Part shown: positions 1-20,341 of the stretch, piece by piece
Layout: the number at the start of each line of letters is the position of its first letter
Position numbering within the stretch: position 1 is the stretch's first letter
Source of the DNA: a virus
Virus record (IMG/VR): IMGVR_UViG_3300047558_000117
Location: 1 to 23,129 of that record
Length of the DNA: 23,129 nt
Strand: one strand, 5' to 3'
Position numbers and translations under genes: made by a program
The notes under the pieces: model-generated
The model's database searches: none
Told to the model about the DNA's origin: nothing
The model's input: only the letters and a program-made list of their open reading frames with translations

Positions 1-309
1 GAAAGCAATAGAAACTGTGCAATCAATGTGCCAGTTAGTTACATGGAAGATTCATTCACTTCTTTCTACGAGCCACTTGAGCCCATAAACTCAGAATTCA
101 TTCCATTCAAAGTATATCACGAAGTCAAAACTAAAGTCAAGAAAGTCTTCTCATATACTATGACACACCCTGTATTAATCAATAATACGCTACCTCATGA
201 TGTTGTAGGTGGTCCACTAAAAGATAGAACTATTCTAAGTTGGAGCATTAGTCCTAAATTTAGATTCGAAGAGATAAAGGAAATCTTAAAAGATGCGATC
301 CGACAGTGA
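1..309 (+). CDS. 2OG-Fe(II) oxygenase-like protein, 5'-truncated by window edge
   Basis: The frame is open from base 1 (E-S-N-R-N-C-A-I-N-V-P-V...) to TGA at 307-309, so this is the last 102 residues of a longer gene. A GTG at 28 is not needed as a start. The fragment aligns along its length with the 185-aa product at 1004: 'CAINVPVSY' matches 'ASFNIPIKY', 'TSFYEPLEP' matches 'TSFYKMRED', 'YTMTHPVLINNTLPHDV' matches 'FTMTRPTIINTKIIHGV', and 'RTILSWSI' matches 'RTTISWNV'. That pattern fits a double-stranded beta-helix oxygenase with a distal metal His (H66) and a co-substrate Arg (R76). The HxD half should lie just left of the window. It is the first gene of a plus-strand group of three oxygenase-like genes, and its end overlaps the next gene by 17 bp. 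The substrate is unknown. The family assignment is by motif pattern only. Confidence 0.75.
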   Translation, partial: ESNRNCAINVPVSYMEDSFTSFYEPLEPINSEFIPFKVYHEVKTKVKKVFSYTMTHPVLINNTLPHDVVGGPLKDRTILSWSISPKFRFEEIKEILKDAIRQ

Positions 310-1003
310 TAAGAAAATCATCGAGAGTTACATAAGTGATCCGTATCAGGTTGCTAACTTCATCACTGATGATGAAAGACTAGCATTGATCGATTTCTTC
401 AACAACAGTGAAAGGCATGTTCATAAGCATACTGGTCCTATTACCATTGACGTAACTCAAGATGAATTAAATGCGGAGCCATTCAAATCAATACTAGAAC
501 GCCTTCGTACAGTGATTGGTGACTTTCGTGTATGGACTTCTCTTTATTTTAAGACTGATAGACCGCACATTATTCACAACGATGATGCGTTCAACTACCC
601 ACTATGCTACAAGGGTATAAATATACCACTTGACTTTGAGACCGAAGAGAAGGATACTATAGCTTATCCAGAGTTGTGCTTCTTTGACCAATACTACCTA
701 GAGGGTCCTAGTAAGTTCTTCAAGGGCAGTAGTGATATCAAAGCGTACTACAATTTATCAGTGTATGATTATAGTGATGTGCGCAACTTATCCACTGAGC
801 CATTTCCCGAAGATATCAAGCAACGATATTTTCCTACTATGAAGGACAGTTGGTTAGAAGGACTGAGTTTCAATTCTGCCTTCACTCAGGCTTATGGTAG
901 CATTACTGTATTTGATACTGTTAGATTACATTGTGCTAGTGACTTCAGATTGAAGGGCATTACTTCTAAGTTAGGGCTTAGCATATTCACGGAGAAGATT
1001 TAA
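293..1003 (+). CDS. Putative 2OG-Fe(II) oxygenase, PHxIHND family
   Basis: This is a 236-aa protein. It has 'RPHIIHNDDAF' at residues 90-100, giving a candidate H95-x-D97 metal pair, followed by 'YKGINIPLDFE'. An insertion at 126-145 contains 'FFDQYYLEGPSKFFKG'. A C-terminal 'RLHCASDFRLKG' (211-222) supplies a candidate distal His (H213) and Arg, followed by 'KLGLSIF'. This H-x-D ... H ... R/K order is that of 2-oxoglutarate/Fe(II) dioxygenases, which hydroxylate or otherwise oxidise small molecules, sugars or side chains. The ATG lies inside the end of the preceding gene, behind an AAAGGAAA stretch about 10 nt upstream. The following gene starts directly on its stop (TAA-ATG). No signal peptide or membrane segment is visible. 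It could also be a non-catalytic cupin-like relative; the substrate is unknown. Confidence 0.7.
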   Translation: MRSDSDKKIIESYISDPYQVANFITDDERLALIDFFNNSERHVHKHTGPITIDVTQDELNAEPFKSILERLRTVIGDFRVWTSLYFKTDRPHIIHNDDAFNYPLCYKGINIPLDFETEEKDTIAYPELCFFDQYYLEGPSKFFKGSSDIKAYYNLSVYDYSDVRNLSTEPFPEDIKQRYFPTMKDSWLEGLSFNSAFTQAYGSITVFDTVRLHCASDFRLKGITSKLGLSIFTEKI

Positions 1004-1561
1004 ATGTTGCCATACATTTATTGCCCAGAAATCAAATTAGATTATATTGAATTAATCAACATAGTTCAACGCAGGCGCTTTGAACGCATTGATACGTTTC
1101 ATACTCATCATAGATTGGTCAAAGACGAACCATATCTGATGTATCTACAAGAAAATTATCCTTTTCTAGCAGACGTTTATAACATTTACAATTTGCGAGA
1201 TGAATTAGAGCCACATATTGATAGAGATAGACAGGCTTCATTCAACATACCAATCAAGTATACAGAAACCACAACAACTTCATTCTATAAAATGCGTGAA
1301 GATTATGAATATGAAGTTAATGAAAAAAATATCTATGATAATTATGAAATGAATTCATTAACAGAAATTTTTAGTTTCACGATGACTAGGCCAACGATCA
1401 TCAACACAAAGATAATTCATGGTGTTAAGTTCAACGAGAATCATAACAGATCGTTGACTACTAGACGGACTACAATCAGCTGGAATGTACTGCCTGAATA
1501 TTCATTTGCTGATGTGGTTGCGCACTTCAATGTGGGTGCTGTAAGTGTGCCAACACTTTAG
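1004..1561 (+). CDS. 2OG-Fe(II) oxygenase-like protein, paralog of the truncated gene at position 1
   Basis: This 185-aa product contains 'ELEPHIDRDRQASFNIPI' (residues 67-84; H71-x-D73), 'TRPTIINTKIIHGV' (128-141; H139) and 'RRTTISWNV' (154-162; candidate co-substrate Arg). These give a full H-x-D ... H ... R set in a short oxygenase core. It starts immediately after the stop of the upstream gene, with GGAG about 8 nt ahead of the ATG. Together with the partial gene at 1-309 it forms a paralogous pair flanking the 236-aa oxygenase-like gene. Its last 35 bases overlap, antiparallel, the end of the minus-strand oxygenase gene. The codons are A/T-rich compared with the tail block. The substrate is unknown. 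Confidence 0.7.
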   Translation: MLPYIYCPEIKLDYIELINIVQRRRFERIDTFHTHHRLVKDEPYLMYLQENYPFLADVYNIYNLRDELEPHIDRDRQASFNIPIKYTETTTTSFYKMREDYEYEVNEKNIYDNYEMNSLTEIFSFTMTRPTIINTKIIHGVKFNENHNRSLTTRRTTISWNVLPEYSFADVVAHFNVGAVSVPTL

Positions 1562-2228
1562 CTACGTTGTCATTAGTCATGGGCACGTTTAAGATTAGAT
1601 GCTGACTATCATTGATCCAACTGATTGTGCGGTGTGTCTTACGTGTGTTGACGTAATACACTCTGCCTTCTTCAATCTGTAACTTTCTATCAGTGTCAAT
1701 CAACCAGTCGTATTCGAGTGGAGCGCAGTTGCGTAAGAAGCATACAAGTCTGAATGACTCACGTGGCATCGATGGGTGGTCACGATGTGGCACGAAATAG
1801 CCGCCGATGTTTGACTGAATGATGAATGAACGGCCGAGTGGTGCGAACTCGTCGAGTAGTGGGTGTAGACTTGTACAGGCATCATACAGCGGTGTACGGT
1901 ACGAGAACTCTAACTCGCTTAGTCTACGACCAGCGGCATAACTACACTCTGCTAAACTAGGCGCTTCATTATGCTTACGACCTTCTAAGTGTGTAAGCAC
2001 CATTGCTTTACGATTGTTGGCTCTGTCTGTGCGCGGTAGATATTCTACCCAGTCGTTCTCAAAAGGTTGTAGTTCTTGATTGTATCGATTGATATCAATC
2101 TTGATATTGAGTGGCTCAAAGTCGCCTAAGTTGAGTAGGGCTAATTCATTTGCGATAGTTTCTATCGTAACGTTGGCTGTGTCGTAGACGGGTGGGCGGC
2201 CTGATACGCCTGGTGGTACTGCTGTCAT
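1527..2228 (-). CDS. Aspartyl/asparaginyl beta-hydroxylase-like 2OG oxygenase
   Basis: The start is ATG at 2228, which overlaps the stop of the upstream PP-loop gene as ATGA and has AAGGA 7 nt ahead. An ATG at 2270 in the same frame would overlap the neighbour by 46 bp and has no Shine-Dalgarno. The resulting 233-aa protein shows 'IGGYFVPHRDHP' (141-152), the GG-x-PHxD pattern of the AspH-type fold with H148 and D150. 'RVYYVNTRKTHRTISW' (189-204) places the distal His at H199. Where the family usually has an Arg before the last strand (R..L.), this protein reads 'DSQHLILNV', so the 2OG-anchoring residue may be unusual. It is the last gene of a three-gene minus cassette: glycosyltransferase-like, PP-loop, oxygenase. 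The substrate is unknown; amino-acid or sugar hydroxylation is typical of the fold. Confidence 0.8.
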   Translation of the reverse strand: MTAVPPGVSGRPPVYDTANVTIETIANELALLNLGDFEPLNIKIDINRYNQELQPFENDWVEYLPRTDRANNRKAMVLTHLEGRKHNEAPSLAECSYAAGRRLSELEFSYRTPLYDACTSLHPLLDEFAPLGRSFIIQSNIGGYFVPHRDHPSMPRESFRLVCFLRNCAPLEYDWLIDTDRKLQIEEGRVYYVNTRKTHRTISWINDSQHLILNVPMTNDNVAKVLAHLQHPH

Positions 2229-2842
2229 ATTGTTCCTTGATCTTCTTTTAGTAGTTGCGTAAATGCCCATGCCCGTTCACCACACTGCCAACATTCATTA
2301 CATCTACTGTCTGGTCGCTCTGTACAACTATGAGTGATGGGCATGATTGCTTCTAAGCCGTACTCATACATAAAGTCAACAATGTGTGTCTTGTATAAGT
2401 CTACGAATGGGAAACGATACTTCTCATTAGGTTCTTTACGATCACGTTGTGGCTCACGACCGTCTGCTAAATCAGGATGAACTTGATTGAGGGCATTGTA
2501 TAAGATATCACATTTATCTCTGTGTTTAGTAAAGATATCTTCTACTGCGGTCTTACTCATTAGTCTATGAAACACCGTCGGGTCACCAACTAAGATAGTT
2601 TGAGGTAACTTCATATCGTATGCCTGATTGAAGTAGTTGATAACATTAGTAGCATGAACATGGCTACCGTCTGCTTTAGGTATAGTAAACGTGGTTAGTC
2701 TACCATCGTATCCATTCTCGTGTAAGAAGTATAAGAGTACCGCACTATCAAAGCCGCCGCTAAGCATGATAGCATACTTCTTATCGTCTTGAGGTGGGTT
2801 GATGGTAACTTGGGCGCCATCTAGTCTGCTTGTATAGATCAT
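2225..2842 (-). CDS. QueC-like PP-loop ATPase (7-cyano-7-deazaguanine synthase family)
   Basis: This 205-aa protein has the PP-loop signature 'AIMLSGGFDSAVLL' (residues 24-37), which binds ATP and adenylates a substrate. Near the C-terminus is 'HSCTERPDSRCNECWQCGER' (171-190), a C-x7-C-x2-C-x2-C zinc site followed by an Arg, as in QueC. QueC converts 7-carboxy-7-deazaguanine and ammonia into preQ0, the precursor of queuosine and of 7-deazaguanine DNA modifications in several phages. No QueD, QueE, FolE or DNA-transglycosylase gene is in the window. The neighbours are a glycosyltransferase homologue (ATGA overlap upstream) and an oxygenase (ATGA overlap downstream), so a related amide- or nitrile-forming reaction on another substrate is possible. 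Membership of the QueC-like family is clear; the exact substrate is not. Confidence 0.82.
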   Translation of the reverse strand: MIYTSRLDGAQVTINPPQDDKKYAIMLSGGFDSAVLLYFLHENGYDGRLTTFTIPKADGSHVHATNVINYFNQAYDMKLPQTILVGDPTVFHRLMSKTAVEDIFTKHRDKCDILYNALNQVHPDLADGREPQRDRKEPNEKYRFPFVDLYKTHIVDFMYEYGLEAIMPITHSCTERPDSRCNECWQCGERAWAFTQLLKEDQGTI

Positions 2843-3519
2843 GGTGTTGATAGTTGATAGTAATAGTTATCGAGCCAGTCATAATCGTTGATTTTATTCA
2901 ACTCGGCCATATTGTCGTCGTGTTGCTTGACGTACTCGATTGCGTCTAAGTAGCCTTGATATGCCCACTCTGCGTGTGGTTGGGTAGAGTGCTCGGCTTT
3001 GCGCCAGCGTTCGAGATACATCTCTCTGTTCTGCTGACTGCGCTCACGTAGTATCACGCTTAGTAGTTTGACACAGTGACGGAATGCGGCCCGCCATGCT
3101 TCGAACTCGCTTGCGTTGTATTGCGATATGCTCAACACTCTGTCGCTCATTGTTTTTGTCTTGACTGCGTTGAGGGTGAAATCACCCTTGCTCATGTCTG
3201 TATTGATGAAGCTGTCTTTGCGCCATAGTTTGACTGCGCCTAGACTTGACGCATCACCTATTACGATTGGGTCGTATGCTCTGAACATAATAAGGTCAGT
3301 TGTGATTGCTTCGTTATAGTCCAAGTTCTCTACTACCAGATTGTCGCCGTCTACTGTCCAAAAGAATGGGGTAGTTGATAATGAGTTACAGGCTAGGTGT
3401 ATGCGGTCGATGCCAGTGATACCATGAATACGCTTAGCATTTGGATGACGGCGCTTGAGGGCTTGCCAGTTATATTCGGCATTTGTCTCGCGGTAGCTAA
3501 TAAAAAAGATATCGTACAT
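2839..3519 (-). CDS. GT-A-like glycosyltransferase homologue with WRxxFR motif
   Basis: This 226-aa protein opens with a Rossmann-like strand 'YDIFFISYRE' and has 'FFWTVDGDNLVV' (52-63), a DxD-type sugar-nucleotide/metal motif in D57-G-D59. A second block, 'AWRAAFRHCVKL' (141-152), and 'PHAEWAYQGYLDAIEY' (181-196) are also found in the gene at 11881 ('AWRAGFREGVKL') and in the repeat-bearing gene at 4895 ('TWRTAFREVIKL', 'QHAEWSIIGAQDGINYY'). The three form one family within the window. The likely role is transfer of a sugar from a nucleotide donor. It is the promoter-proximal gene of a three-gene cassette and is separated by only 20 bp from the divergent gene at 3540. No strong Shine-Dalgarno precedes its ATG. 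The acceptor is unknown. Confidence 0.72.
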   Translation of the reverse strand: MYDIFFISYRETNAEYNWQALKRRHPNAKRIHGITGIDRIHLACNSLSTTPFFWTVDGDNLVVENLDYNEAITTDLIMFRAYDPIVIGDASSLGAVKLWRKDSFINTDMSKGDFTLNAVKTKTMSDRVLSISQYNASEFEAWRAAFRHCVKLLSVILRERSQQNREMYLERWRKAEHSTQPHAEWAYQGYLDAIEYVKQHDDNMAELNKINDYDWLDNYYYQLSTP

Positions 3520-3539
3520 GGTGAAGTAAATAGAGTGTC

Positions 3540-4469
3540 ATGCTATTTACAAGATTTAAAGAGACCGCTGAAAAATACTACAACAGACCTGCTCTGAATG
3601 GTGTTTTATATTACGAGCTACTTGAAATTGTAGAAGAAGGCACGTACAACCCAGTAGCAGATTGTGGCACAGCACGAACCATTATTGATATCTTGATTGC
3701 TAGTCGGCACGGCAAGCCCATCGTTGTGCCGCCACTGGTCAAACAGAACTGGGCTGAGGCCGAGACAGAAGATGGATTCGGGCTGTATCTATACACCAGC
3801 GGTACTACAGGCGGCGTTCGTAGGGCAGTCAAACTAACTGATGCTATGATTGTAGCAAATGCCCACAACAGCATTGCCTTACATAATATGACGCCGTACG
3901 ATATTGTGTATACGGTGTGTAGTATGAGGCACACTGGCGGTATCAATGCTCAGACTATTGCGGCTCTACTATGCGGTGCTCATGTGATAGTTGAAGCGTT
4001 CAACCCGTATCGTTTCTACGAGCGTTGTAGCGATATCGGTGCTACTATCAGCCATCTAACACCTCGTATGATTGATGCGCTTGCTGGTGTCAAGAGTAAG
4101 CAAGCGACTAGACTCGAAGTTGTGACTTGTGGTAGCGATTGCGTCTACCGTCGTCACGTTGAACACTTTATAGAACAAGACATTGACTTTATCATAAACT
4201 ATGGCCTGACGCAAGCTGGGCCTATCTTAATCAATCACCGCTTTAGTAAGGGCAGTGACTTGTCGGTGTTTGATAAGGCAGGCGTACCGCTAGGAACTAT
4301 TGCCTGGTGTGAGATAATGTTTATCGGCGCTAATATGTGGGTCAAGGGCGATAGCGTTAGCAGTGATACTTGGCTAGCTACCGATGATGGTGTTTATCAG
4401 GCGGGCGAATGGTATATGTACAGAGGAAGGCTGGTCGATGGAACTTGTCAAATTATCCCCAAAGCATGA
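3540..4469 (+). CDS. Adenylate-forming (ANL superfamily) enzyme lacking the C-terminal lid
   Basis: This 309-aa protein carries ANL core motifs in order: 'LYLYTSGTTGGVRRAVKLT' (82-100, the A3 phosphate loop), 'ISHLTPRMID' (170-179), 'INYGLTQAG' (219-227, A5), 'ATDDGVYQAGEW' (280-291, A7 region) and 'YRGRLVDGT' (294-302, A8 hinge). It stops a few residues after the hinge. The usual ~100-residue C-terminal domain with the A10 lysine is absent, and the N-terminal part is also short (typical enzymes exceed 480 aa). The Pro-Lys normally closing A3 is replaced by Val-Arg-Arg. ANL enzymes activate a carboxylate as acyl-AMP; without the lid, later thiolation is doubtful. The next gene, a GNAT-like protein, starts inside its 3' end, suggesting the two act together. 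No carrier protein is seen. The substrate is unknown. Confidence 0.78.
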   Translation: MLFTRFKETAEKYYNRPALNGVLYYELLEIVEEGTYNPVADCGTARTIIDILIASRHGKPIVVPPLVKQNWAEAETEDGFGLYLYTSGTTGGVRRAVKLTDAMIVANAHNSIALHNMTPYDIVYTVCSMRHTGGINAQTIAALLCGAHVIVEAFNPYRFYERCSDIGATISHLTPRMIDALAGVKSKQATRLEVVTCGSDCVYRRHVEHFIEQDIDFIINYGLTQAGPILINHRFSKGSDLSVFDKAGVPLGTIAWCEIMFIGANMWVKGDSVSSDTWLATDDGVYQAGEWYMYRGRLVDGTCQIIPKA

Positions 4470-5013
4470 TGCGTTATTAGACCAGTTCTGCCAGGAATGT
4501 GAGATAGCAGGCTATACTAATAATACTAGTCGTGAGGCAATGAAACTGATTGATGGTCATGACCTGCCTACCGACCCACAATATTGGGGTTTGATTGTCG
4601 ATGGTGAGTTGGCTAGTATTAGTGGGTGCCACGGCTATGACAGTGGTGGCAGAATCCTACGTTGTTTATTTCGCAGTGCTACCTTGCCAAAATATCAGCA
4701 TATTATTCCTGGCACAAGCAAGACTCATATGAACAGCGCACCGTTTAGTTTATTACTGCCATATCAAATAGACTGGGGCATCGAGAATGGCTACCACGAA
4801 TTCTATATTACCACTAGTCATGGCTCACATGATGCTAGTGGTAAAATGAACAGAACTCACCGAGCCCTGCAATTATTAGCCAAGCAAGGTATTGTTAATT
4901 ATGTGGGAGAAGAGGAATATTATTGGACTCCTCAGACAATATGGGCTCTTGATAAGGCAAAGTATCTTCAAGCTCTGGCATCTTTTCGAACTGCTCACGG
5001 TATTGCTCATTAA
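4438..5013 (+). CDS. GNAT-like N-acyltransferase
   Basis: The start chosen is ATG at 4438, preceded by GAGGAAGG about 8 nt upstream; an in-frame ATG at 4384 lies deep in the preceding gene. The 191-aa product begins with a typical short N-terminal strand ('ELVKLSPKHDALLDQF'). It then has 'YWGLIVDGELASISGCHGY' (a substrate-contact strand pair), 'ILRCLFRSATLP', and a helix-strand region 'IDWGIENGYHEFYITTS' followed by 'THRALQLLAKQG', as in GNAT folds. The classic acyl-CoA loop (R/Q-x-x-G-x-G/A) is not obvious, so the assignment is moderate. It overlaps the lid-less ANL gene by 32 bp, suggesting an activate-then-transfer pair acting on an amine such as an amino sugar. The last 119 bp overlap, antisense, the end of the gene on the other strand. 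Confidence 0.55.
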   Translation: MELVKLSPKHDALLDQFCQECEIAGYTNNTSREAMKLIDGHDLPTDPQYWGLIVDGELASISGCHGYDSGGRILRCLFRSATLPKYQHIIPGTSKTHMNSAPFSLLLPYQIDWGIENGYHEFYITTSHGSHDASGKMNRTHRALQLLAKQGIVNYVGEEEYYWTPQTIWALDKAKYLQALASFRTAHGIAH

Positions 5014-6259
5014 AATAGAATTTTAGCCACGACCATTTAAATGTTTTCATTAGTTGCTGGTGATCGCCGCCCACTTTATCGTAATAATTAATACCGTCTT
5101 GAGCGCCAATAATACTCCACTCTGCGTGTTGACCACGAGCATAAGTTAACCACACCTGTAGTCGTTCTAGACTTTCATCGCTACCGTCAGCCCGTAATTT
5201 AATTACTTCACGGAACGCGGTGCGCCAGGTCATGGTAATATCACTATTATATTGGGCGATGCCACAGGAAATAGGCACAATATCGTGTAATTTACTCATG
5301 GTAAAATCTAGACCATATTCTGTGGTTTCTAGCACTAGATTTCGATTATAGCATACAGCCGCCTGATGTCCATATTCCAGTCCATTTAGCGGGTTAGTAG
5401 AATAAAAAATATAATGCTTAGGCTCATACGAACGGTTTGGTTGAAAATTGTAATCAAAGGTGTCACTTGCCCAGATTTTAGCAGGGAATAAGATGAACCA
5501 ATTTGTATTACTAATTTCAGCCGCATGACGAATAGCATTTTCACGGCCATCGATGCCACGAACCCAGCGGACTTCTCGACCAGCTACCTGACATAATCTG
5601 TCATAACGCTCCTGCTCACCAGTCTCACCATTACTTAAAAATATAATATCTAGTGGCTTAATTGTAATATCTGCCACAATATCAGTCATATGCTTAATTT
5701 GTAAGCCAGGACCTTGAGAATAAATGATGGCAGAATCATTAAATGAATAATTGTACATTAAATCAGTAGCATCAGGGTGCCAGCTAAAATCAAAACTATT
5801 TACAATCACATCTCGATCAATCCGCCATTTTTCCATATTAACAATAGCAACCGCCTTTTGTGTATCAATATATCTAATTCGTCTGGCACCTTGTTGAATA
5901 TATCTGGGACCACCTGTCTTTTGATGCTGGGTGCCAAACTGATAGATATAAGGTCGTTCAGTTCTAGGTGGGTGCCAACTAAAATCAAAATCATCGCAAT
6001 TAATATTAGGTGGTATTTCCCATACAGACATATCATTAGCATATGCTTTGCCTACCTGATCGGTTTCATATTTTACTTGGGTAGCGCCATAAACAACTAA
6101 TCTAGGTCCACCGTCGGGCTGATGCTGACTAGGAAATTGATGTATCCATGGCTCCTCAAACATATTAGGACGCCATGTTAAATCAAAATCTGTAATATCA
6201 ATATTATTGGGAATTTCCCAATAATCTACCTGTTCATCTAGTGGTGGCTGCTCGTTCAT
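4895..6259 (-). CDS. Repeat-bearing glycosyltransferase homologue without DxD
   Basis: This 454-aa protein has two parts. Residues 14-190 hold three copies of a ~50-aa repeat: W-x-I-P at 14-17 and 80-83, W-R-I at 145, then 'DFDLTWRP', 'DFDFSWHP' and 'SFDFSWHP', then an aromatic Y/W-I-Y/H-Q-F segment, 'GGP' and a 'GA..(K/R)Y' end. Residues about 203-420 match the WRxxFR glycosyltransferase family: 'DIIFLSNGETGEQERYDRL', 'TWRTAFREVIKL' (344-355) and 'QHAEWSIIGAQDGINYY'. The metal motif, VDGDN or IDGDN in the two homologues, is replaced by 'LFPAKIW' (257-263), followed by a fourth, degenerate repeat 'TFDYNFQPNRSYEP'. It may therefore bind rather than transfer a sugar, or use another metal-free mechanism. 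The C-terminal 39 codons are antisense to the GNAT-like gene. Confidence 0.7.
   Translation of the reverse strand: MNEQPPLDEQVDYWEIPNNIDITDFDLTWRPNMFEEPWIHQFPSQHQPDGGPRLVVYGATQVKYETDQVGKAYANDMSVWEIPPNINCDDFDFSWHPPRTERPYIYQFGTQHQKTGGPRYIQQGARRIRYIDTQKAVAIVNMEKWRIDRDVIVNSFDFSWHPDATDLMYNYSFNDSAIIYSQGPGLQIKHMTDIVADITIKPLDIIFLSNGETGEQERYDRLCQVAGREVRWVRGIDGRENAIRHAAEISNTNWFILFPAKIWASDTFDYNFQPNRSYEPKHYIFYSTNPLNGLEYGHQAAVCYNRNLVLETTEYGLDFTMSKLHDIVPISCGIAQYNSDITMTWRTAFREVIKLRADGSDESLERLQVWLTYARGQHAEWSIIGAQDGINYYDKVGGDHQQLMKTFKWSWLKFYFNEQYREQFEKMPELEDTLPYQEPILSEESNNIPLLPHN
5690..6220 (-). repeat. Three protein-level repeats (FDFSWHP repeats) in the 454-aa gene
   Basis: The copies occupy about 6220-6062, 6022-5867 and 5827-5690 on the minus strand. 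Each contains W-x-I, F-D-(F/L)-(S/T)-W-(H/R)-P and a Y-rich strand; the first two also share Q-F-x-(S/T)-Q-H-Q, G-G-P-R and G-A-x-(Q/R)-(V/I)-(K/R)-Y. Copies 1 and 2 are closest and copy 3 is shorter. A diverged fourth copy lies inside the glycosyltransferase-like part near 5473-5360 (F-D-Y-N-F-Q-P). I know of no named domain that fits. Short beta-rich carbohydrate- or protein-binding modules are a plausible reading. Confidence 0.7.
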
Positions 6260-6304
6260 AAGCTATATTTACTCCTGCTATTATAACACAATAAATAAGG
6301 CATA

Positions 6305-6955: not shown

Positions 6956-6956
6956 A

Positions 6957-8422: not shown

Positions 8423-8424
8423 AA

Positions 8425-8499: not shown

Positions 8500-8533
8500 T
8501 CCTGCCGCTCCGCTTACTATTATTACTCTAAGC

Positions 8534-9358
8534 CTAAGAGCCGCTAGGCTCCATCCTGCCACACCACTCCGCCCAGTCCATAGTCCATATAGCATCCATG
8601 GTAGCCTTCACTCTATCTCTACCATGGACATCATCGGGAGGCAGCATGATCATCCTATTAGCTAAAATAATTAAAAATAAATTAGTATGAAAATAATTAT
8701 TTTTTAAAGTGCAAAACGCCTTGTGGACCCGTGTGGAGAAAAAATTTTGCGAGTGAGGAGCGACGGTGCCTGCTTGGCCAGTGTCTACCAGCGTGGTTTC
8801 CACTATGGACAGCATAAGTTCAACGAGGTCAAAGTGGGCAGAGGCAAGAAAATTCTCCCTAGCGTAACAAAAATAATACTGGCGACCGTAGGAGTCCCAT
8901 CTAATATTCTCTAAGCGAAGCGCACCATGGTATTGTGTGCGTGGTAGCACGGTAGGCACACCTTCTAAACAATCCGTCACTGAGCATGGTAGATATGTGG
9001 TCTGTGACAGGATGCTTTCATACAGTGGTAGCCAGTTGAAGGCCACATCCCTAACCCACTCTTCACCTAGCGTAGTAAGCATACGTGTGGTCTGGCGTAG
9101 GAAACGATTGAGGCCACCTTGATCTACTATATGCTCTATAGCAGTGGGTCCAGGGATTCCACAAGGATGCTGGATTATAATGCCACCATAGTCACTATCA
9201 TCGTCGTCAAACGCTATTAAGAGTGGTTGATTGACTATATCTGCTAGTTGATACATACGTGCGGGCATAAGATTAGTGCCTGGACCAGTAATCATCTCTA
9301 GAGGGTTACGATCCTCGTCTGCTATTAGCTGGTGGATGGTAGGTTCAAAGTATTGCAT
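8534..9358 (-). CDS. Aminoglycoside-phosphotransferase-like protein, probably catalytically dead
   Basis: This 274-aa protein contains 'YHGALRLENIRWDSYGRQYY' (143-162), then 'FCYARENF', then 'AHFDLVELMLS' (174-184). That is the spacing of an APH/choline-kinase catalytic loop (HGDxxxxNI...G...hID...) followed by (F)DL. If the match is right, the catalytic Asp of HGD is Ala145 and the metal-binding Asp of the ID motif is also missing, leaving N151 as the only retained polar residue. The N-terminal 'YGGIIIQHPCGIPG' and a helix ending 'LTTLGEE' would fit the hinge and the alanine-histidine helix. The start ATG has no clear Shine-Dalgarno; a later start (M23) is possible. Base composition changes inside the gene: the last ~120 bases (8534-8650) are C-rich on the plus strand and 8655-8710 is very A/T-rich. 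I am sure it is coding and only moderately sure of the fold. Confidence 0.45.
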   Translation of the reverse strand: MQYFEPTIHQLIADEDRNPLEMITGPGTNLMPARMYQLADIVNQPLLIAFDDDDSDYGGIIIQHPCGIPGPTAIEHIVDQGGLNRFLRQTTRMLTTLGEEWVRDVAFNWLPLYESILSQTTYLPCSVTDCLEGVPTVLPRTQYHGALRLENIRWDSYGRQYYFCYARENFLASAHFDLVELMLSIVETTLVDTGQAGTVAPHSQNFFSTRVHKAFCTLKNNYFHTNLFLIILANRMIMLPPDDVHGRDRVKATMDAIWTMDWAEWCGRMEPSGS

Positions 9359-9518: not shown

Positions 9519-9620
9519 TTAATAAATGAAGGGATCATTCTTGCGTAGGGCATCTAGGCGTTTCTGACGTTTTCTACGTTCTAGCCATTGCTTGATAAGG
9601 GTGACGGGGTTGAAGGTCAT
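9519..9620 (-). CDS. Small basic protein, 33 aa, ending DPFIY
   Basis: ATG at 9620 overlaps the stop of the SGNH hydrolase gene as ATGA and has a perfect AAGGAG 8 nt upstream. The product starts MTFNPVTLIKQWLERRKRQK and ends RLDALRKNDPFIY. It has a hydrophobic N-terminal stretch, a strongly basic helix (about 9 Arg/Lys in the central 20 residues) and a 'DPFIY' end. Small basic ORFs with this ending are familiar to me from marine T4-like phages, but no function is known. It is the last gene of the eight-gene operon. The basic face suggests nucleic-acid or membrane binding; this is inference. Confidence 0.8.
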   Translation of the reverse strand: MTFNPVTLIKQWLERRKRQKRLDALRKNDPFIY

Positions 9621-10480
9621 AGTTGTATCTCCTTGGTCGAGGCTTCTACTACCTTATCTTGGTGGTAGATACCAGGGTGGGCATGAACACGATTGCCAAA
9701 TTGTGGTTGTACGAATAAGTCACGAGCGTGTAGACTATTGAGGGCCTCCATAGTATTAGTCTGGTGGTTGTCCAGGTCTTCACGGCCAGTTGATATTTGG
9801 GCTATGTTAGTGTACTGAGCAAAGAAGTTCTGGTATTGGCCGCGGTCGTGATGTGGTCCAGTTGACATTTGAAAGATAGGGATTCCATGGGCCTTAGCTA
9901 GTAGTCCTACTGTGTCTAGATAGTGTCTGAAAATGTTGTGTACGTGGCTGTCCTCTAGGATGGTGGTTTCATATGCAGAGCGCCAGTATTGTGTATGTTC
10001 ATTATCTGTTAGGTAGTCAGGTTGTAGATTAACTAGCTGATGATTGCGCCAGTAAGTTTCTCTGTATAGTGGCGGCCAGTTAATGTGAATCGCCCTGGGT
10101 TTAGCTGGCGCGGTGGCCAATAGTTTTACTAAGTTGAGCATCACGAATTTAGGTGTGCCGCCGTTCATGGCAGCATTGATATAGTCACAGCCGTAGTGTT
10201 CGGCGATACGGTAGGCGTAGGTTTCTTCGAGTGGTAAGCCAGTGCCATAAGCATACGAGCAGCCAAGGAATAGGATATAGTTACTCCAGTGGGTATCATG
10301 TAGCTCATGATTCATTCTGTAACCATGGCTATTAAGCCTATAGGTGAAGGGATTATCATAGAAGCGCCAGCGAGGTCCCCACTGTGCCTTATTCTGGGCA
10401 TGACGGTGCTCGTCATCTGAAGGGATGTATGGGTAAACATTGCCTCTATGTACGGTGGGCACAGGGTAGAGGCAGTCCAT
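9617..10480 (-). CDS. SGNH/GDSL-type hydrolase or acyltransferase
   Basis: The start chosen is ATG at 10480, which overlaps the radical SAM stop (TGATG) and has GGAAG 8 nt upstream; an in-frame ATG at 10495 has no ribosome site. The 287-aa protein has 'NYILFLGCSYAYGTGLP' (block I, nucleophile S75), 'DYINAAMNGGTP' (block II), 'RAIHINWPP' (block III) and 'NRVHAHPGIYHQD' near the end (block V, catalytic His in the HxHPG segment). SGNH enzymes cleave or move O-acyl groups on glycans and lipids. No signal peptide is visible, so it acts in the cytoplasm or on the virion. It lies between the radical SAM gene and a 33-aa gene, both coupled to it, in the glycan-type operon. The substrate is unknown. 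Confidence 0.78.
   Translation of the reverse strand: MDCLYPVPTVHRGNVYPYIPSDDEHRHAQNKAQWGPRWRFYDNPFTYRLNSHGYRMNHELHDTHWSNYILFLGCSYAYGTGLPLEETYAYRIAEHYGCDYINAAMNGGTPKFVMLNLVKLLATAPAKPRAIHINWPPLYRETYWRNHQLVNLQPDYLTDNEHTQYWRSAYETTILEDSHVHNIFRHYLDTVGLLAKAHGIPIFQMSTGPHHDRGQYQNFFAQYTNIAQISTGREDLDNHQTNTMEALNSLHARDLFVQPQFGNRVHAHPGIYHQDKVVEASTKEIQL
9629..9634 (-). promoter_or_regulatory. Strong Shine-Dalgarno AAGGAG for the 33-aa gene
   Basis: AAGGAG on the minus strand lies 8 nt before the ATG at 9620, within the 3' end of the SGNH gene. It is the best ribosome site in this operon and is the main evidence that the 33-aa reading frame is translated. Confidence 0.8.
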
Positions 10481-11880
10481 CAATACTGCTTCCATTGGTG
10501 ATATGCTGGCGCTAGGAGGGGGAATGTCTCCAAGAAGTTGGTGCCACGGCGTCGGTCATGCTCGTCTACGAATCGGCAAAAGTCCAGTCTATTACGTATT
10601 TTATCACTATCCACACGCTTTGTCAACTCTCCTTCCAACATTTCTTTGATACGAACTAAATCATTAACTTCGTGTAGATAGAAGCCTTGATGCTGTAGTA
10701 GTTGTTTTTCTGGTGACTCAGTGTTGGCGGTCATGTATTCAACTGCTTCTGTGACCCAGTGGAGGTGATCGGTCTCTAAGATAAACGCAGTCTGATGAGT
10801 AGGGTTGCGCAGGAAGGGAATACTTAGTATCACTGGGCTTTGATTAGTACCAGGCTTAAAGTATCTAAGTTTAAAGTCTAAGACATCCTCTAAGAAACGC
10901 TTGTATGTAGGCATGCTTAGGAAATTATAGGTGCTCATAATGATTACTTGTACGCTAGGTAGGGCAGTAAGTGTCTTGTTCATATTAGCTAACCACCCGT
11001 CATAGTCCATGCCATTACGAATGTATTCAGCGTTCGTGCCATGGGCCTCGGCAGAGGTATAGATTTCAAACTTCTTTACCATGCCACCATCAACAATCTG
11101 CTTGACAAGCTCTAAGAACCGGTCGTATAATTGATCTGGCGGGTTCATGTTGGTGTTAACTGCTACAGTTAAGCGTGGGTTAGGGTTGGCAATAATATAC
11201 TCTAGGACCTTAAACGTATCTTTACTCAAGATAGGCTCGCCGCCAGTAATGCGGAAGTGCTCTAAGGTGTCATAAATTTGAGGCCACCACTGCCAGAACG
11301 CTTCCACATAAGGGTTCTCTTGATTGTTAGGGATAGGCATCTGCCCAGCGTTCTGGAAGTGATAGAGGCCATTGAACTGAGTAGTTGTCGGGTAGTGACC
11401 ATGGCGTTGAATCTCCTCCATCCACTGGCTAGATATGTTAGGACTACAATAGGAGCACTTAAAGTTACACACATTAGAGAATGATACTTCTAAGTATGAA
11501 GGAGATACGTTGTCGTCCCATGGCTTGCTCACGATGGTGTCCAGATGTGGACGGGCCCATGCTTCACTAGACTTAGTAATACGATCACTGTATTGATTAG
11601 AGTTGTCCTCTACCTTCCAGCAGTATCCACACTCATGCGGACGCACTCCTTCTAGCATTAGTCGGCGCTGTTCCTTCTTGAAGTTAGTATTGTGTAAGGC
11701 GGAGACGTTAATCTTGATCTCTTCGAGTGGTACTTTGTGGGTGCCAGGGTGATGGCATGAGTGGGTATGTCCATTCTGTAGGTGAATCGTCACCTGCTTC
11801 CACTTAGCTACACACATTGAGGGTGAAATCCTATCTAGTGCTTGTTTAGCTTCCTGGTGTATTTGTGTTATCTTGTTCAT
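10480..11880 (-). CDS. Radical SAM enzyme with N-terminal twitch-type cysteine domain
   Basis: This 466-aa protein has the canonical radical SAM triad in 'SNVCNFKCSYCSPN' (C138, C142, C145) and the SAM-binding 'RITGGEPILS' (210-219). Ahead of it is a second cysteine set: C23, C42 in 'HSCHHPGTHKVPLEEI' and C84/C87 in 'GVRPHECGYCWKVED'. These could hold an auxiliary iron-sulfur cluster, as in twitch or SPASM radical SAM enzymes. Such enzymes do epimerisations, cross-links or deoxygenations on peptides and sugars. The layout matches the N-terminal-twitch radical SAM proteins I know from marine phage genomes. The ATG abuts the stop of the glycosyltransferase gene (TAA-ATG), and the stop overlaps the SGNH start. 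No precursor-peptide gene is obvious nearby. The substrate is unknown; a sugar intermediate fits the operon. Confidence 0.88.
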   Translation of the reverse strand: MNKITQIHQEAKQALDRISPSMCVAKWKQVTIHLQNGHTHSCHHPGTHKVPLEEIKINVSALHNTNFKKEQRRLMLEGVRPHECGYCWKVEDNSNQYSDRITKSSEAWARPHLDTIVSKPWDDNVSPSYLEVSFSNVCNFKCSYCSPNISSQWMEEIQRHGHYPTTTQFNGLYHFQNAGQMPIPNNQENPYVEAFWQWWPQIYDTLEHFRITGGEPILSKDTFKVLEYIIANPNPRLTVAVNTNMNPPDQLYDRFLELVKQIVDGGMVKKFEIYTSAEAHGTNAEYIRNGMDYDGWLANMNKTLTALPSVQVIIMSTYNFLSMPTYKRFLEDVLDFKLRYFKPGTNQSPVILSIPFLRNPTHQTAFILETDHLHWVTEAVEYMTANTESPEKQLLQHQGFYLHEVNDLVRIKEMLEGELTKRVDSDKIRNRLDFCRFVDEHDRRRGTNFLETFPLLAPAYHQWKQY

Positions 11881-12813
11881 TTAATAAGTCTCTCTGTCCA
11901 TAATGTTGGTGTTTTTCCAGCCTGCTACAATGTATTGTTTAAATACCTCGGATTGTGGGGCTTCTATCTCTACGATGTTAAGTCCTAAAGCCCTGTTTAG
12001 TTCCTGGGCTATCCCGCGTGAGTGTTCGTCTGTATCTGCTTTATGTTGTTCCCATAGCGCATCTAGGGCGTCAAAGTCTTGGACGTCACGATGATCCCAG
12101 TCTCGTAGCATTAGATAGTGTGTGCCTAGTCGTGCGCCATACATAGCCCACCAGCCATACTCCACGTCACGACCTAGGCTCCACCAGTGCCATAAGTTGC
12201 GCATACAGGTAGGCCATACCCACTGTTTAAAAGATTGTCTAGATTGTGGCATCTCACCACTACGTCCACATAGCTTTACACCTTCACGAAAGCCAGCCCG
12301 CCATGCTTGTTTAGCACTGTAGTTAGGGTATGTCGTACTATACCAGTTGTGCATTGGCCAATATAGTGGGTCATAGCAGAACTCAATGTTAGTATGTGGG
12401 TTAAGAGGGTCAGCCGCCTCATGAGTACGCATGTTATTGATAAATGTCTTGGTCCAGCATGAAACGCCACCATTGCCATAGTACAAGCCATTGACATGAT
12501 TTAGGGAGCGCCAGCGAAACTGAGCATCCTTGTTCGCATCAGTGATAGTTAATACCTCATCTAAGAAGTCATCATTGATCATATTGTCGCCATCGATTAA
12601 GATGAAGCGTTCAGTATTAGATGCAGCTGCCGCGGCTTTGTGTGCCGCATCCGAACCCTTGACACCATCTACACGCTGTGCCCATGGTATCATGTTCTTG
12701 ATCTTGACCCAGAACTCCTCCTTCTGTGGCTCATCGTAGGTAAGGTAGATTACATCTAGGTCTTCTAGATAGATTTGTTGGAGGACAGTTTCTGGGTTAT
12801 TTGACGATTTCAT
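11881..12813 (-). CDS. GT-A-like glycosyltransferase, WRxxFR family
   Basis: This 310-aa protein has 'DLDVIYLTYDEPQKEEFW' (18-35), 'WAQRVDGVKGSDAAHKAA' (44-61), then 'RFILIDGDNMINDDFL' (69-84) with the D74-G-D76 metal/sugar-nucleotide motif. 'QAWRAGFREGVKLCG' (169-183) follows. It aligns with the gene at 2839 and with the C-terminal part of the gene at 4895. A Trp-rich stretch (196-225) and a C-terminal tail ('FKQYIVAGWKNTN') are its own. It likely transfers a sugar from a nucleotide donor in the cytoplasm. It overlaps the 133-aa gene by 17 bp and touches the radical SAM gene. The ribosome site is weak, suggesting dependence on coupling. The acceptor is unknown; virion fibre proteins encoded upstream are candidates. 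Confidence 0.75.
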   Translation of the reverse strand: MKSSNNPETVLQQIYLEDLDVIYLTYDEPQKEEFWVKIKNMIPWAQRVDGVKGSDAAHKAAAAASNTERFILIDGDNMINDDFLDEVLTITDANKDAQFRWRSLNHVNGLYYGNGGVSCWTKTFINNMRTHEAADPLNPHTNIEFCYDPLYWPMHNWYSTTYPNYSAKQAWRAGFREGVKLCGRSGEMPQSRQSFKQWVWPTCMRNLWHWWSLGRDVEYGWWAMYGARLGTHYLMLRDWDHRDVQDFDALDALWEQHKADTDEHSRGIAQELNRALGLNIVEIEAPQSEVFKQYIVAGWKNTNIMDRETY

Positions 12814-13198
12814 ATACTCGGGTAGTTAATAGATTGTGCTCCTCACCATCGCTGGCAGGGATACAGACATCATATTTACTAACCTTGTAGCCATCTGTTG
12901 AATTTCTCTCTAGCTTGAACACTTGATGCTTACGATGCGTGAATACTAGCTGACCATCTAGCACCTTGGCATCATGTCGACCTTGAGCATACTGATCAGC
13001 GGTGATAGTGATATAATCGCCAGGGATCGCCTGCATAGTGTATGTAATGATGCTACCATCTGGGTTATAGTATACACGATACTCCGTGGGTGGAGGAGGC
13101 GTGGCCTCTGATAAGGTTGACATTAGAGACTCTAAGAGTGCGGCTTGCTGGTCGGGTGGCAGGGCTTCTAGCTCCTGGAGTAGTTGGTCATTGTTCAT
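12797..13198 (-). CDS. Conserved-looking 133-aa phage protein of unknown function
   Basis: An N-terminal helix rich in Leu and Gln ('DQLLQELEALPPDQQAALLE', 4-23) is followed by a Pro linker (PPPP at 34-37). A beta-rich domain then begins 'EYRVYYNPDGSIITYTM' (39-55) and continues through 'GDYITITADQYAQGRHDAKV' to 'DGQLV'. I do not recognise a named family, although YYNxDGxIxxYT-type proteins are familiar from marine phages. The ATG lies 11 bp inside the preceding glycosyltransferase gene, with GGGAG 8 nt ahead. Placement between glycosyltransferases suggests an accessory, scaffold or target protein; this is inference. It has no cysteine-rich site, membrane segment or signal peptide. Confidence 0.75.
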   Translation of the reverse strand: MNNDQLLQELEALPPDQQAALLESLMSTLSEATPPPPTEYRVYYNPDGSIITYTMQAIPGDYITITADQYAQGRHDAKVLDGQLVFTHRKHQVFKLERNSTDGYKVSKYDVCIPASDGEEHNLLTTRVYEIVK

Positions 13199-13979
13199 TG
13201 CCTAGCTCCCTGTTAATGATTGTAGCAAAGTCTTTGTTATAGTAGTGTACGGGATACCACTGGTGGTGTGACTGAATACGTAGCGCATGAGGCAGGACCT
13301 CGTATACTAACTCGTTGTGCCATACTTCTGTTTGTAGATTCTGAATCCACCGTTTCATATGGACCATAGAGAAGTCTGCGAGGCTAGGCATAGTACAATT
13401 CTCTACGCCATGTAGTAGAGTGGCAATACCATAGACTACATCTGTGGTAGCGTTTTCCTCTGATGAGTGCTTGAGAGTAGCCTTAACCTCTGGCCAGTTT
13501 TCAAAAATGTCTTTTACTGTGGCATAGAATCCTTCTGCTAGGGTGCTCTTTTTAAAGTATGTCATAGCATTATACACGGAAGGTAAGCCACTGTCAATAA
13601 ATGTTTGTCTATAAGCTGGTGAGGTGGATATGGCGCCACGATAGTCTCTGATTGTAGTACAGATATTGAGGTCACGATCCTTATGTGCGTCCCACCACCA
13701 GTCTACAGCACGTGGTAGATATAGGTCGGACTCTAACTTAATAGTCTCCTGGTATGGCGATAGATTGTATACTTGATAGTCATCAGCCAGACGCCATGGG
13801 TCCTTAGACACTGAAGTAGTCTTGATAATGTGGTCATAGCGACTATCACTGATATCGTGGTCAGTGATTAAGCTAACTTTAGCCTGTGGCATAGTACGAT
13901 GTATGCTATCAGTTAGGGTGTTGGCGCATACCAGGTATTGTTGGTCGCCAGTAGCAACAATAACGAATCCTCTGCTCAT
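13188..13979 (-). CDS. GT-A-like glycosyltransferase paralog (ESD motif)
   Basis: This 263-aa protein has a Rossmann start 'RGFVIVATGDQQYLVCA' (3-19), 'KVSLITDHDI' (34-43), 'YNLSPYQETIKLESDLYLP' (71-89) and 'ATTDVVYGIA' (177-186). It is a paralog of the next gene upstream, which has 'YDLTPYDETLVLDTDYVV' at the matching place. Here the first Asp of DxD is Glu (E83-S-D85), which some families tolerate. A C-terminal 'HHQWYPVHYYNKDF' (238-251) replaces the His-rich end of the paralog. It is coupled by ATGA to the upstream gene and has GGAGAG 6 nt before its start. It is a likely sugar transferase, perhaps with altered donor use or reduced activity. Confidence 0.7.
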   Translation of the reverse strand: MSRGFVIVATGDQQYLVCANTLTDSIHRTMPQAKVSLITDHDISDSRYDHIIKTTSVSKDPWRLADDYQVYNLSPYQETIKLESDLYLPRAVDWWWDAHKDRDLNICTTIRDYRGAISTSPAYRQTFIDSGLPSVYNAMTYFKKSTLAEGFYATVKDIFENWPEVKATLKHSSEENATTDVVYGIATLLHGVENCTMPSLADFSMVHMKRWIQNLQTEVWHNELVYEVLPHALRIQSHHQWYPVHYYNKDFATIINRELGNEQ

Positions 13980-14803
13980 TTGTTTCTCTCCTCGTCCGCC
14001 GCAATCATATTCATAAACTCAGGCTTGCCCAACATATGAAAGTCATGGTCAACTATCTCAATATAGGCTGGACGCTGTCGCCCACGAATGTCTACATCGT
14101 GGGTCAGCTTGAATCTGTTGTAGTCTAGCATTTCTATGGTACCACTAGCGTCTAGGTGCTGTAATTGACCAGGGATACTATCTTCGGGTAGCTCTAACTG
14201 GCCATTGACTGTGCGCATGGCAATAGTTAGGGCATAGTCGTTTCTGAATGTGTTAGATAGGAACTTGTACAATTCGCCATAGTAGTCATAGTTCTCTTGG
14301 ATAGTAGTCATCATGTGGAAGATATCGTGGGCACGTTGTGACTTGCGGAAGCGTATGACTGTTGCCCAGTATGTACCTTGGAATACATCTGAGATTAGCT
14401 CATTGGGTTCGTCGGCAAAGATATACTTGGCTGAAGTATAGCATACAAAGTCACTGGGCAGATTAAATGTCTTGAGTAGTTCCCTGCTGTTTACTACATA
14501 GTCAGTATCTAGGACCAAGGTTTCATCGTATGGAGTTAAGTCGTATACTAGGTGGCGAGACTTATTGAACCATGACATTTTGTGCATCTTATTAGTACGA
14601 TCAGGGTCGATTAGAATAGTGCGGTCGAACTGATATGAGCCAGTGATGGATGGTCTGGTCGCAGTAGTATCTAGGGTATTCTTGTCAGTAATGATTGTAA
14701 CAGGCAGACCTAGAAAGTGGTTGATACGCTTGGCAGCCCAGCATGCCATGCGATAGTAGTCATTGTTGTTATTGTGGGCAATTAGGACGGCACCTCTAGT
14801 CAT
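13976..14803 (-). CDS. GT-A-like glycosyltransferase (DTD motif)
   Basis: This 275-aa protein has 'RGAVLIAHNNNNDYYRMACW' (3-22), 'LPVTIITDKNTL' (33-44), 'YDLTPYDETLVLDTDYVV' (87-104) with the D99-T-D101 metal/donor motif, and 'FRNDYALTIAM' (186-196). A C-terminal 'DHDFHMLGKPEF' (252-263) recalls the HxxGxxK end of GT8-like enzymes. It probably transfers a sugar from a nucleotide donor. It starts one base after the stop of the 105-aa gene and overlaps the next gene as ATGA. With the 13188 gene it forms a tandem duplicate pair whose second copy has an altered DxD. The target is unknown; position next to the tail-fibre genes and a late-type promoter favours virion-associated work. Confidence 0.78.
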   Translation of the reverse strand: MTRGAVLIAHNNNNDYYRMACWAAKRINHFLGLPVTIITDKNTLDTTATRPSITGSYQFDRTILIDPDRTNKMHKMSWFNKSRHLVYDLTPYDETLVLDTDYVVNSRELLKTFNLPSDFVCYTSAKYIFADEPNELISDVFQGTYWATVIRFRKSQRAHDIFHMMTTIQENYDYYGELYKFLSNTFRNDYALTIAMRTVNGQLELPEDSIPGQLQHLDASGTIEMLDYNRFKLTHDVDIRGRQRPAYIEIVDHDFHMLGKPEFMNMIAADEERNK

Positions 14804-14804
14804 A

Positions 14805-15122
14805 TTATCGCTTAGTAGATAAGGCTTGTAATTCGGCGTTCCACTCTAGCATAACTGTGGTATATACTTCTTCTGCGGCGTATAGGAGGTCTTTTACTCG
14901 CACTGAGATAGGGTTGCTATAGTCGTCTAGGAGGACAGCTTTATCTGTAGGCGTGGTGCGTAGATAGGCTAGTAATTCGGTGGTCACTGTAAACTTGCCA
15001 CCATTGTGTAAGGTCGTTAATCGTGGTAGATACTTCTCTTTAAGGTATACTTTGGATTCCTGGAAGTGGAAGCGTTCTTTGATGTTGTCAACTAAGACTC
15101 TGGTAGTTTGAATATCTGACAT
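14805..15122 (-). CDS. 105-aa conserved-looking phage protein heading the glycosyltransferase operon
   Basis: This 105-aa product is charged and has no signal or membrane segment. 'VLVDNIKERFHFQESKVYLK' (9-28) looks helical; 'RLTTLHNGGKFTVTTELLAY' (34-53), 'KAVLLDDYSNPISV' (61-74) and a closing helix 'VYTTVMLEWNAELQAL' follow. I recall similar small hypothetical proteins near tail genes in marine myoviruses but no function. TAGGAG lies about 7 nt before the ATG, and a T4-late-like octamer lies 19 nt before it, so this gene probably begins the transcript that carries the glycosyltransferases, radical SAM and SGNH genes. It could be an adaptor or a small virion component; this is inference. Confidence 0.8.
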   Translation of the reverse strand: MSDIQTTRVLVDNIKERFHFQESKVYLKEKYLPRLTTLHNGGKFTVTTELLAYLRTTPTDKAVLLDDYSNPISVRVKDLLYAAEEVYTTVMLEWNAELQALSTKR

Positions 15123-20333: not shown

Positions 20334-20341
20334 TATTTATT
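20334..20341 (-). promoter_or_regulatory. T4-late-promoter-like octamer AATAAATA
   Basis: On the minus strand AATAAATA differs from TATAAATA at one position and lies in the 34-bp gap before the 641-aa fibre gene, 22 nt from its ATG. A start 6 nt downstream would give a leader of about 16 nt with the AGAGG ribosome site. Spacing and context fit a late promoter read by a gp55-type sigma factor. Confidence 0.5.

What the first reader, a model, noticed from the sequence alone, without database searches (positions are those of the whole stretch)
1..15122. A decoration island: transferases plus five kinds of tailoring chemistry beside tail-fibre genes
Between 1 and 15.1 kb I see four GT-A-like genes (one lacking its metal motif), a radical SAM enzyme, an SGNH hydrolase, a carbamoyltransferase, a GNAT-like and an adenylate-forming enzyme, a SAM methyltransferase, a QueC-like PP-loop enzyme and five 2OG-oxygenase-like proteins, with almost no replication or virion genes. 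The right-hand operon lies just after fibre genes behind a late-like promoter. The whole resembles a sugar or small-molecule biosynthesis and tailoring pathway carried by a phage. My hypothesis is that it builds a modified glycan on the phage's own fibre or structural proteins, or remodels the host surface late in infection. The individual families are known; the combination acting as one pathway is inference.
Basis: partly seen in the sequence, partly recalled or inferred. Interest (0 to 1): 0.75.

Follow-up and report, generated by a model that had tools for sequence, protein, structure and literature searches.

The report
Late fibre–glycan operon in aquatic phages
This stretch of an uncultured T4-like water phage carries a gene set, switched on together with its tail-fibre genes, that very probably builds and chemically trims a sugar chain; the same core recurs behind fibre genes in about 80 other phage contigs, while the rest of the cluster is a changing patchwork.

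Summary
There are five GT-A-like genes, not four. The carbamoyltransferase is only its N-terminal half. The 'GNAT' matches no profile. The QueC-like enzyme lacks the canonical QueC substrate motifs.

The island is two things. (1) The right half is one late operon: fibre genes, g20, two GT8-fold transferases, g17, a DGD-bearing GT-A protein, a twitch radical SAM enzyme and an SGNH protein. A T4-type late motif lies about 30 nt before the fibre gene in 75 of 78 loci. In 80 GT8 loci the order breaks only at contig ends. (2) The left half is a mosaic of small cassettes found only in the window's close relatives.

In Bdellovibrionota chromosomes the GT-A protein and the radical SAM enzyme are again neighbours (9 of 10 loci), and one such locus sits inside a glycosyltransferase/aminosugar cluster. 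That supports a glycan role independently of phages. Late co-expression favours a glycan on the fibre or virion; host-surface remodelling, the published reading of similar pelagimyophage islands, is not excluded. DNA hypermodification is unlikely. No GenBank phage record searched carries the core.

The parts
20334..20341 (-). T4-type late promoter motif (AATAAATA), 30 nt before g24
   Evidence: the same motif type precedes the homologous fibre gene in 75 of 78 loci, background 0.01
20346..22289 (-). g25 fibre/structural protein
   Evidence: phrog_6427, phrog_697, phrog_19602 tail fiber
18386..20311 (-). g24 fibre protein, first gene after the late motif
   Evidence: PF11962 Peptidase_G2 25.1 bits; paralogue of g25
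17390..18376 (-). g23 FIB family, putative fibre protein
   Evidence: three paralogues g21-g23; FIB present in 79 of 80 GT8 loci, the other starts inside the operon
16230..17375 (-). g22 FIB family
15174..16217 (-). g21 FIB family
14805..15122 (-). g20 small conserved core protein
   Evidence: 82 loci
13976..14803 (-). g19 GT8-type glycosyltransferase (DTD motif)
   Evidence: model pLDDT 91; glycogenin Z 16.4, LgtC Z 14.7
13188..13979 (-). g18 paralogue of g19 with degenerate DxD (ESD)
12797..13198 (-). g17 small conserved core protein
   Evidence: 83 loci
11881..12813 (-). g16 GT-A-like core enzyme with DGDN motif
   Evidence: 34-sequence alignment 69% mean identity with DGD invariant; homologue of the GT-A domain of g09
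10480..11880 (-). g15 twitch-domain radical SAM enzyme
   Evidence: NF033640 320.9 bits; C138/C142/C145 and C23/C42/C84/C87 invariant
9617..10495 (-). g14 SGNH-like protein
   Evidence: motif pattern only; G78-C79-S80 conserved
8534..9358 (-). g13 unknown protein of the window clade
   Evidence: 5 loci
7502..8422 (-). g12 carbamoyltransferase, N-terminal domain only
   Evidence: PF02543; no PF16861 in the window clade versus 22 of 27 relatives; alignment
6915..7526 (+). g11 Asp/Arg beta-hydroxylase-like 2OG oxygenase
   Evidence: PF05118
6305..6955 (+). g10 methyltransferase-like; AATAAATA at 6290
   Evidence: motif pattern; late-type motif 13-15 nt upstream in 5 of 7 loci
4895..6259 (-). g09 GT-A-like domain without DxD plus three WHPD repeats
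4384..5013 (+). g08 'GNAT-like', unsupported by profiles
3540..4469 (+). g07 short adenylate-forming enzyme
   Evidence: PF00501; A3 and A5 motifs
2839..3519 (-). g06 GT-A-like, DGDN motif
2225..2842 (-). g05 QueC-superfamily PP-loop enzyme, not canonical QueC
   Evidence: motifs from PMC13329287
1527..2270 (-). g04 2OG-like (HRD ... H213)
   Evidence: related to Mosig Asp_Arg_Hydrox protein
1004..1561 (+). g03 2OG-like
   Evidence: HID motif; paralogue of g01
293..1003 (+). g02 2OG-like (HND ... H213)
1..309 (+). g01 2OG-like, 5' end cut by the window

Best explanation
This is the host-recognition (fibre) region of an uncultured T4-like aquatic phage. Its right half is a single late operon that makes the tail-fibre proteins together with a glycan-building and glycan-tailoring module: two GT8-fold transferases (g19, g18), a DGD-bearing GT-A enzyme (g16), a twitch radical SAM enzyme (g15) and an SGNH-like protein (g14). 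I infer that the GTs assemble a sugar chain and the radical SAM and SGNH proteins modify its sugars. I infer that the acceptor is most likely the phage's own fibre or another virion protein, because the enzymes are made late and are always co-transcribed with fibre genes. The left half is a clade-specific mosaic of tailoring cassettes (2OG oxygenases, methyltransferase, adenylate-forming and QueC-superfamily enzymes). Some of these may decorate the same product; they are not shown to be one pathway. Shown: gene content, synteny, promoter motif, two folds, cellular linkage. Inferred: glycan chemistry, order of steps, acceptor.
For: Late motif NATAAATA near -30 before the fibre gene in 75 of 78 loci, rare or absent before g20/GT8/g17/FISYD, whose ORFs overlap (median gaps -4 to -17). 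In 80 GT8 loci every copy sits in this operon, with breaks only at contig ends. 18 of 18 large contigs (174-352 kb) carry one g16 orthologue. T4 kinship by gp23. GT8 fold Z 16.4 and GT-A fold Z 10-12. Radical SAM cysteines invariant. Cellular FISYD (g16-like) genes lie beside twitch rSAM genes in 9 of 10 Bdellovibrionota loci; 5 of 10 have two or more GTs versus 2 of 43 rSAM-only loci (Fisher 0.0015, or 0.006 without the query locus L213). L213 is flanked by GT2 genes, an amine oxidase and a DegT aminotransferase. No TET/JBP above cut-off.
Against: No acceptor, donor sugar or product is known. The published reading of similar islands is host O-chain modification (PMC7029224). The fibre link could reflect packing of adaptive genes rather than acceptor identity. 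The late motif shows timing only by analogy with T4. Of the cellular contexts inspected by Pfam only L213 is a full glycan cluster; L236 is not one. The loci are related, so counts are not independent.
Confidence: 0.5

Rival explanations
1. The same enzymes remodel the host's surface polysaccharide late in infection (superinfection exclusion or progeny release), as proposed for pelagimyophage host-recognition clusters.
For: Published interpretation of GT8 and radical SAM cassettes next to fibre genes (PMC7029224). Cellular homologues of the g16-g15 pair lie in or near chromosomal glycan genes. LgtC, an LPS GT8 enzyme, is among the structural matches.
Against: Transcription only with late fibre genes is late for excluding other phages. 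The core never separates from the fibre genes, which host-surface enzymes would not require.
Confidence: 0.3
2. Only the core is a functional unit. The left-half genes are unrelated cargo (defence, small-molecule or protein modification) that accumulated in a hypervariable fibre region. This can hold alongside either reading of the core.
For: Left genes occur in 4-7 loci only; L004 lacks g02 and g05; L005 and L006 have extra radical SAM genes inserted between g08 and g07; divergence varies gene by gene.
Against: They are kept under purifying selection and share chemistry types with islands of isolated marine phages (S-SSM7, Mosig).
Confidence: 0.35
3. DNA hypermodification: 2OG enzymes oxidise bases and GT/carbamoyl enzymes decorate them, as in TET-associated phage clusters.
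For: 2OG oxygenases, GTs and a carbamoyltransferase co-occur, as I recall for TET-associated phage clusters (memory, not tested).
Against: No Tet_JBP domain in the window genes scanned or above cut-off in 16 related contigs. 2OG genes are not conserved with the GT core. Expression appears late with fibres.
Confidence: 0.04

Closest known systems
Pelagimyophage/cyanomyophage host recognition cluster (PMC7029224)
   Same: Fibre genes plus GT8-type glycosyltransferases and radical SAM cassettes in a hypervariable island of T4-like phages
   Different: Here an invariant core (g20-GT8-GT8-g17-g16) lies in one late fibre operon. No sequence match to Mosig VrlC. g16 and g15 not found in 50,697 GenBank phage records
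S-SSM7 and Mosig EXVC030M fibre-adjacent clusters
   Same: Nol-like carbamoyltransferase, 2OG oxygenases, methyltransferase and sugar enzymes beside fibre/structural genes
   Different: The carbamoyltransferases aligned there cover both domains; no g16 core found by tblastn
Mycobacteriophage virion glycosylation (Freeman 2023, cited in PMC12619734)
   Same: Phage-encoded glycosyltransferases decorating virion proteins
   Different: Mycobacterium phages; capsid and tail-tube acceptors reported; no radical SAM tailoring known to me
T4-like environmental genome with 12 radical SAM genes (PMC5332604)
   Same: Multiple radical SAM genes in an uncultured T4-like phage
   Different: Interpreted there as Fe-S metabolism; no link to a fibre operon in the passage read
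Bdellovibrionota chromosomal FISYD-rSAM pairs (L213 and others)
   Same: Same two families side by side, DGD motif kept in L213, GT genes nearby in half of the loci
   Different: No fibre genes, no GT8 pair

Membership tests
Phage host recognition cluster (PMC7029224) | Fibre genes together with GTs and radical SAM genes in a variable T4-like region | tested here: met
Phage host recognition cluster (PMC7029224) | Located between VrlC and the neck gene gp14 | tested here: inconclusive
   Upstream protein is a phrog_10938 virion protein with no BLASTP match to Mosig VrlC; the gp14 family rang nowhere, controls included
GT8 glycosyltransferases | GT8/GT-A fold over the whole chain with DxD | tested here: met
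   g19: Z 16.4 to glycogenin over 207 residues, DTD at 99
GT8 glycosyltransferases | Sequence-profile membership | tested here: not met
   No Pfam or NCBIfam GT match for g18/g19 and no credible PDB sequence match; called 'GT8-fold', not GT8 members
N_Twi_rSAM (NF033640) | Score over curated cut-off, CxxxCxxC and auxiliary-cluster cysteines | tested here: met
   320.9 vs 170 bits; cysteines invariant
NodU/TobZ O-carbamoyltransferases | N-terminal Kae1-like domain | tested here: met
   PF02543 78 bits; H16, H108/H109/H112, D283 invariant
NodU/TobZ O-carbamoyltransferases | C-terminal YrdC-like domain (PF16861) | tested here: not met
   Absent in g12 and L003-L006; present in 22 of 27 relatives
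Canonical QueC | SGGxDS and cysteine zinc motif | tested here: met
   SGGFDS at 28; C(x)7CxxCxxC at 173 (spacing 7, not 8)
Canonical QueC | YxQxHxxE, VPxRN and YPDC substrate motifs (PMC13329287) | tested here: not met
   None found
TET/JBP DNA hypermodification clusters | Tet_JBP oxygenase | tested here: not met
   No match in the window genes scanned; none over cut-off in 16 contigs
Aspartyl/asparaginyl beta-hydroxylases (PF05118) | Profile match over cut-off | tested here: met
   g11 30.2 vs 22.6 bits; other 2OG-like genes did not match
GNAT acetyltransferases | Profile match | tested here: not met
   g08 no match

The most novel reading that the evidence does not exclude
A widespread but uncultured lineage of large T4-like phages carries a dedicated late operon that glycosylates its own tail fibres and then edits the sugars with batteries of twitch radical SAM enzymes (up to 8 per locus). 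Its GT-A/radical SAM pair is exchanged with predatory bacteria (Bdellovibrionota), and giant pseudo-glycosyltransferases made of 3-27 repeated GT-A segments act as non-catalytic partners.
Probability: 0.3. Interest if true: 0.78.

Novelty: new variant of a known kind. Interest (0 to 1): 0.52.

Why it matters
If right, receptor-binding fibres of a large group of uncultured phages are glycoproteins with unusual, rapidly exchanged sugar chemistry. That would bear on host range, immunity to host defences and superinfection. It also gives the first functional context I know of for two unassigned families: the DGD GT-A family and the twitch radical SAM family NF033640, which are linked in phages and in Bdellovibrionota chromosomes.

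Tried and rejected
DNA hypermodification: no Tet_JBP above cut-off. preQ0/queuosine pathway: no QueD family in six related contigs (fragments, so weak) and canonical QueC motifs missing. Placement by gp14: search rang nowhere, uninformative. VrlC identity of the upstream giant gene: no BLASTP match. PDB sequence searches with g16 and g19 profiles found nothing credible. GenBank phage searches found no relatives for the whole window, g15, g09, g10, g08 or g16. Viral scans with g07 and g05 returned only the nearest relatives. A4 was too diverse for a genome scan. Sigma-70 and terminator scans gave no excess over shuffles. N-terminal repeats of g09 were not matched by fold searches; they were not folded alone, so no claim of a new fold is made.
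Full report
What is there. The window is a 23,129-base linear IMG/VR fragment with 26 packed genes and no tRNA. It has no close match among 50,697 GenBank phage records. Profile scans support a twitch radical SAM enzyme, the N-terminal domain of a carbamoyltransferase, a QueC-superfamily PP-loop protein, an adenylate-forming protein and an Asp/Arg hydroxylase. The other assignments rest on motifs, paralogy or fold: five GT-A-like proteins in two families, three further 2OG-like proteins with HxD and a later His plus one truncated at the window edge, a methyltransferase-like and an SGNH-like protein. The 'GNAT' is not supported. dN/dS against close relatives L003 and L004 is 0.02-0.25, apart from 0.49 for the short g17 against L004.

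Two halves with different histories. A scan with g12 gave four close relatives (87-91%) and 23 distant ones; a scan with g16 gave 80 loci and with the GT8 alignment 80 more, partly the same contigs. In these the order fibre (g24-like), FIB, g20, GT8, GT8, g17, g16-like is nearly invariant and is followed by one to several twitch radical SAM genes (368 ORFs in 95 loci, median 4, maximum 8). In the 80 GT8 loci, all lie in this order and the only breaks fall at contig ends (a few loci lack a detectable g17 or g26). Eighteen large contigs each hold one g16 orthologue. In about 20 distant contigs a full-length carbamoyltransferase is followed by a giant g09-like protein. The left half of the window is found only in its nearest relatives (4-7 loci), and even there genes are missing, inserted or replaced.

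Timing. NATAAATA, the T4-type late promoter core, lies about 30 nt before the fibre gene in 75 of 78 loci, against a background of 0.01 per stretch. It is absent before GT8 and g17, and rare before FIB (1 of 90), g20 (3 of 81) and the g16 family (1 of 123). The window site is AATAAATA at 20334-20341 on the minus strand. Core genes overlap by 4-17 bases at the median. This is strong sequence evidence for one late transcript of fibre and transferase genes; the timing itself is by analogy with T4. Large relatives carry the T4 gp23 capsid family.

Chemistry. g19 was modelled at pLDDT 91 and matches glycogenin (Z 16.4, 207 residues) and LgtC (Z 14.7) over its whole length. g09 was modelled at pLDDT 84; residues 200-343 are a GT-A fold (Z 10-12). 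g16 is its homologue and keeps an invariant DGD, which g09 and nearly all the giant relatives lack. Some of the ~60-residue WHPD repeats of g09 and the giants (3-27 copies) match positions 28-106 of the 187-position GT-A profile, so the giants look like arrays of a partial GT-A segment and are probably non-catalytic. g12 keeps the conserved His/Asp residues of its domain but has lost the C-terminal domain in all five contigs of the clade. It is nonetheless under selection (dN/dS about 0.2), so it either uses a partner or has a new role. g05 keeps the P-loop, the zinc motif and PF(x)4K, but none of YxQxHxxE, VPxRN or YPDC, which the QueC survey ties to preQ0 synthesis (PMC13329287).

Independent evidence from cells. 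A genome scan with the radical SAM alignment returned 50 loci, mostly Bdellovibrionota. In L213 a g16-like gene (DGD kept) precedes a radical SAM gene, inside a cluster with four GT2 genes, a weak PMT_2 match, an amine oxidase and a DegT aminotransferase. Of 192 genomes of that phylum, 12 have a g16 homologue. After setting aside phage-like L275, 9 of 10 cellular loci have a twitch radical SAM gene close by, and 5 of 10 have at least two GTs versus 2 of 43 radical-SAM-only loci (Fisher 0.0015, 0.006 without L213). The GT labels came from L213, L229 and L238 queries, so this comparison is biased in detail. On a quick tree, phage and cellular radical SAM genes interleave (12 changes, at least 6 forced by supported branches), with the window gene in a clade of phage and Bdellovibrionota sequences. 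This supports a glycan role and repeated exchange; it does not prove a host.

Best reading and rivals. I hold it likely (about 0.8) that the core makes and edits a glycan. I hold it more likely than any alternative, but not strongly, that the acceptor is a fibre or virion protein (0.5), because the core is late and never leaves the fibre genes. Host-surface remodelling is the published view of comparable pelagimyophage islands (PMC7029224) and stays open (0.3). DNA modification is unlikely (0.04).

Known or new. Fibre-adjacent islands with GTs and radical SAM genes, and T4-like genomes with many radical SAM genes, are described, and carbamoyltransferase/2OG/sugar clusters beside fibres exist in isolates. 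Not found described in the papers read here: the invariant core, its late fibre operon, the pseudo-GT repeat giants, the loss of the carbamoyltransferase C-domain, and the cellular GT-A/radical SAM pair. It is a new variant of a known kind.

Noticed in passing
window 7502-8422; L003-L006: Carbamoyltransferase reduced to its N-terminal domain in the whole clade but under purifying selection; two conserved stretches (SERY and EYILMGMAAYG region) are also altered.
   Followed up: partly
L014:11524-15807, L025:11474-19627, L026:11474-18415: Giant proteins (up to 2717 aa) with 3-27 WHPD repeats that resemble a segment of the GT-A domain, ending in DxD-less GT-A domains; the one scanned (L014) has no Pfam match.
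   Followed up: partly
L213:7135-9362; L276-L284: g16-like plus twitch radical SAM gene pairs on Bdellovibrionota chromosomes, sometimes tandem g16-like genes, near GTs in half of the loci.
   Followed up: yes
L198-L247 versus phage loci: Phage and Bdellovibrionota twitch radical SAM genes interleave on a tree, hinting at repeated exchange or at Bdellovibrionota hosts.
   Followed up: partly
L212, L214, L243, L247, L275: Contigs with the phage fibre operon are binned into bacterial MAGs of unrelated phyla (Neomarinimicrobiota, Verrucomicrobia, Rhodobacteraceae, Bdellovibrionota), so either contamination or host hints.
   Followed up: no
window 2225-2842; L005:7337-8041: QueC-superfamily protein without the canonical substrate motifs; L005 has two copies. 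QueC relatives are known to modify proteins (deazaguanylation), so a protein-modifying role is possible.
   Followed up: partly
window 6290-6297: Late-type motif AATAAATA before the methyltransferase/AspH gene pair on the opposite strand, conserved in 5 of 7 loci.
   Followed up: no
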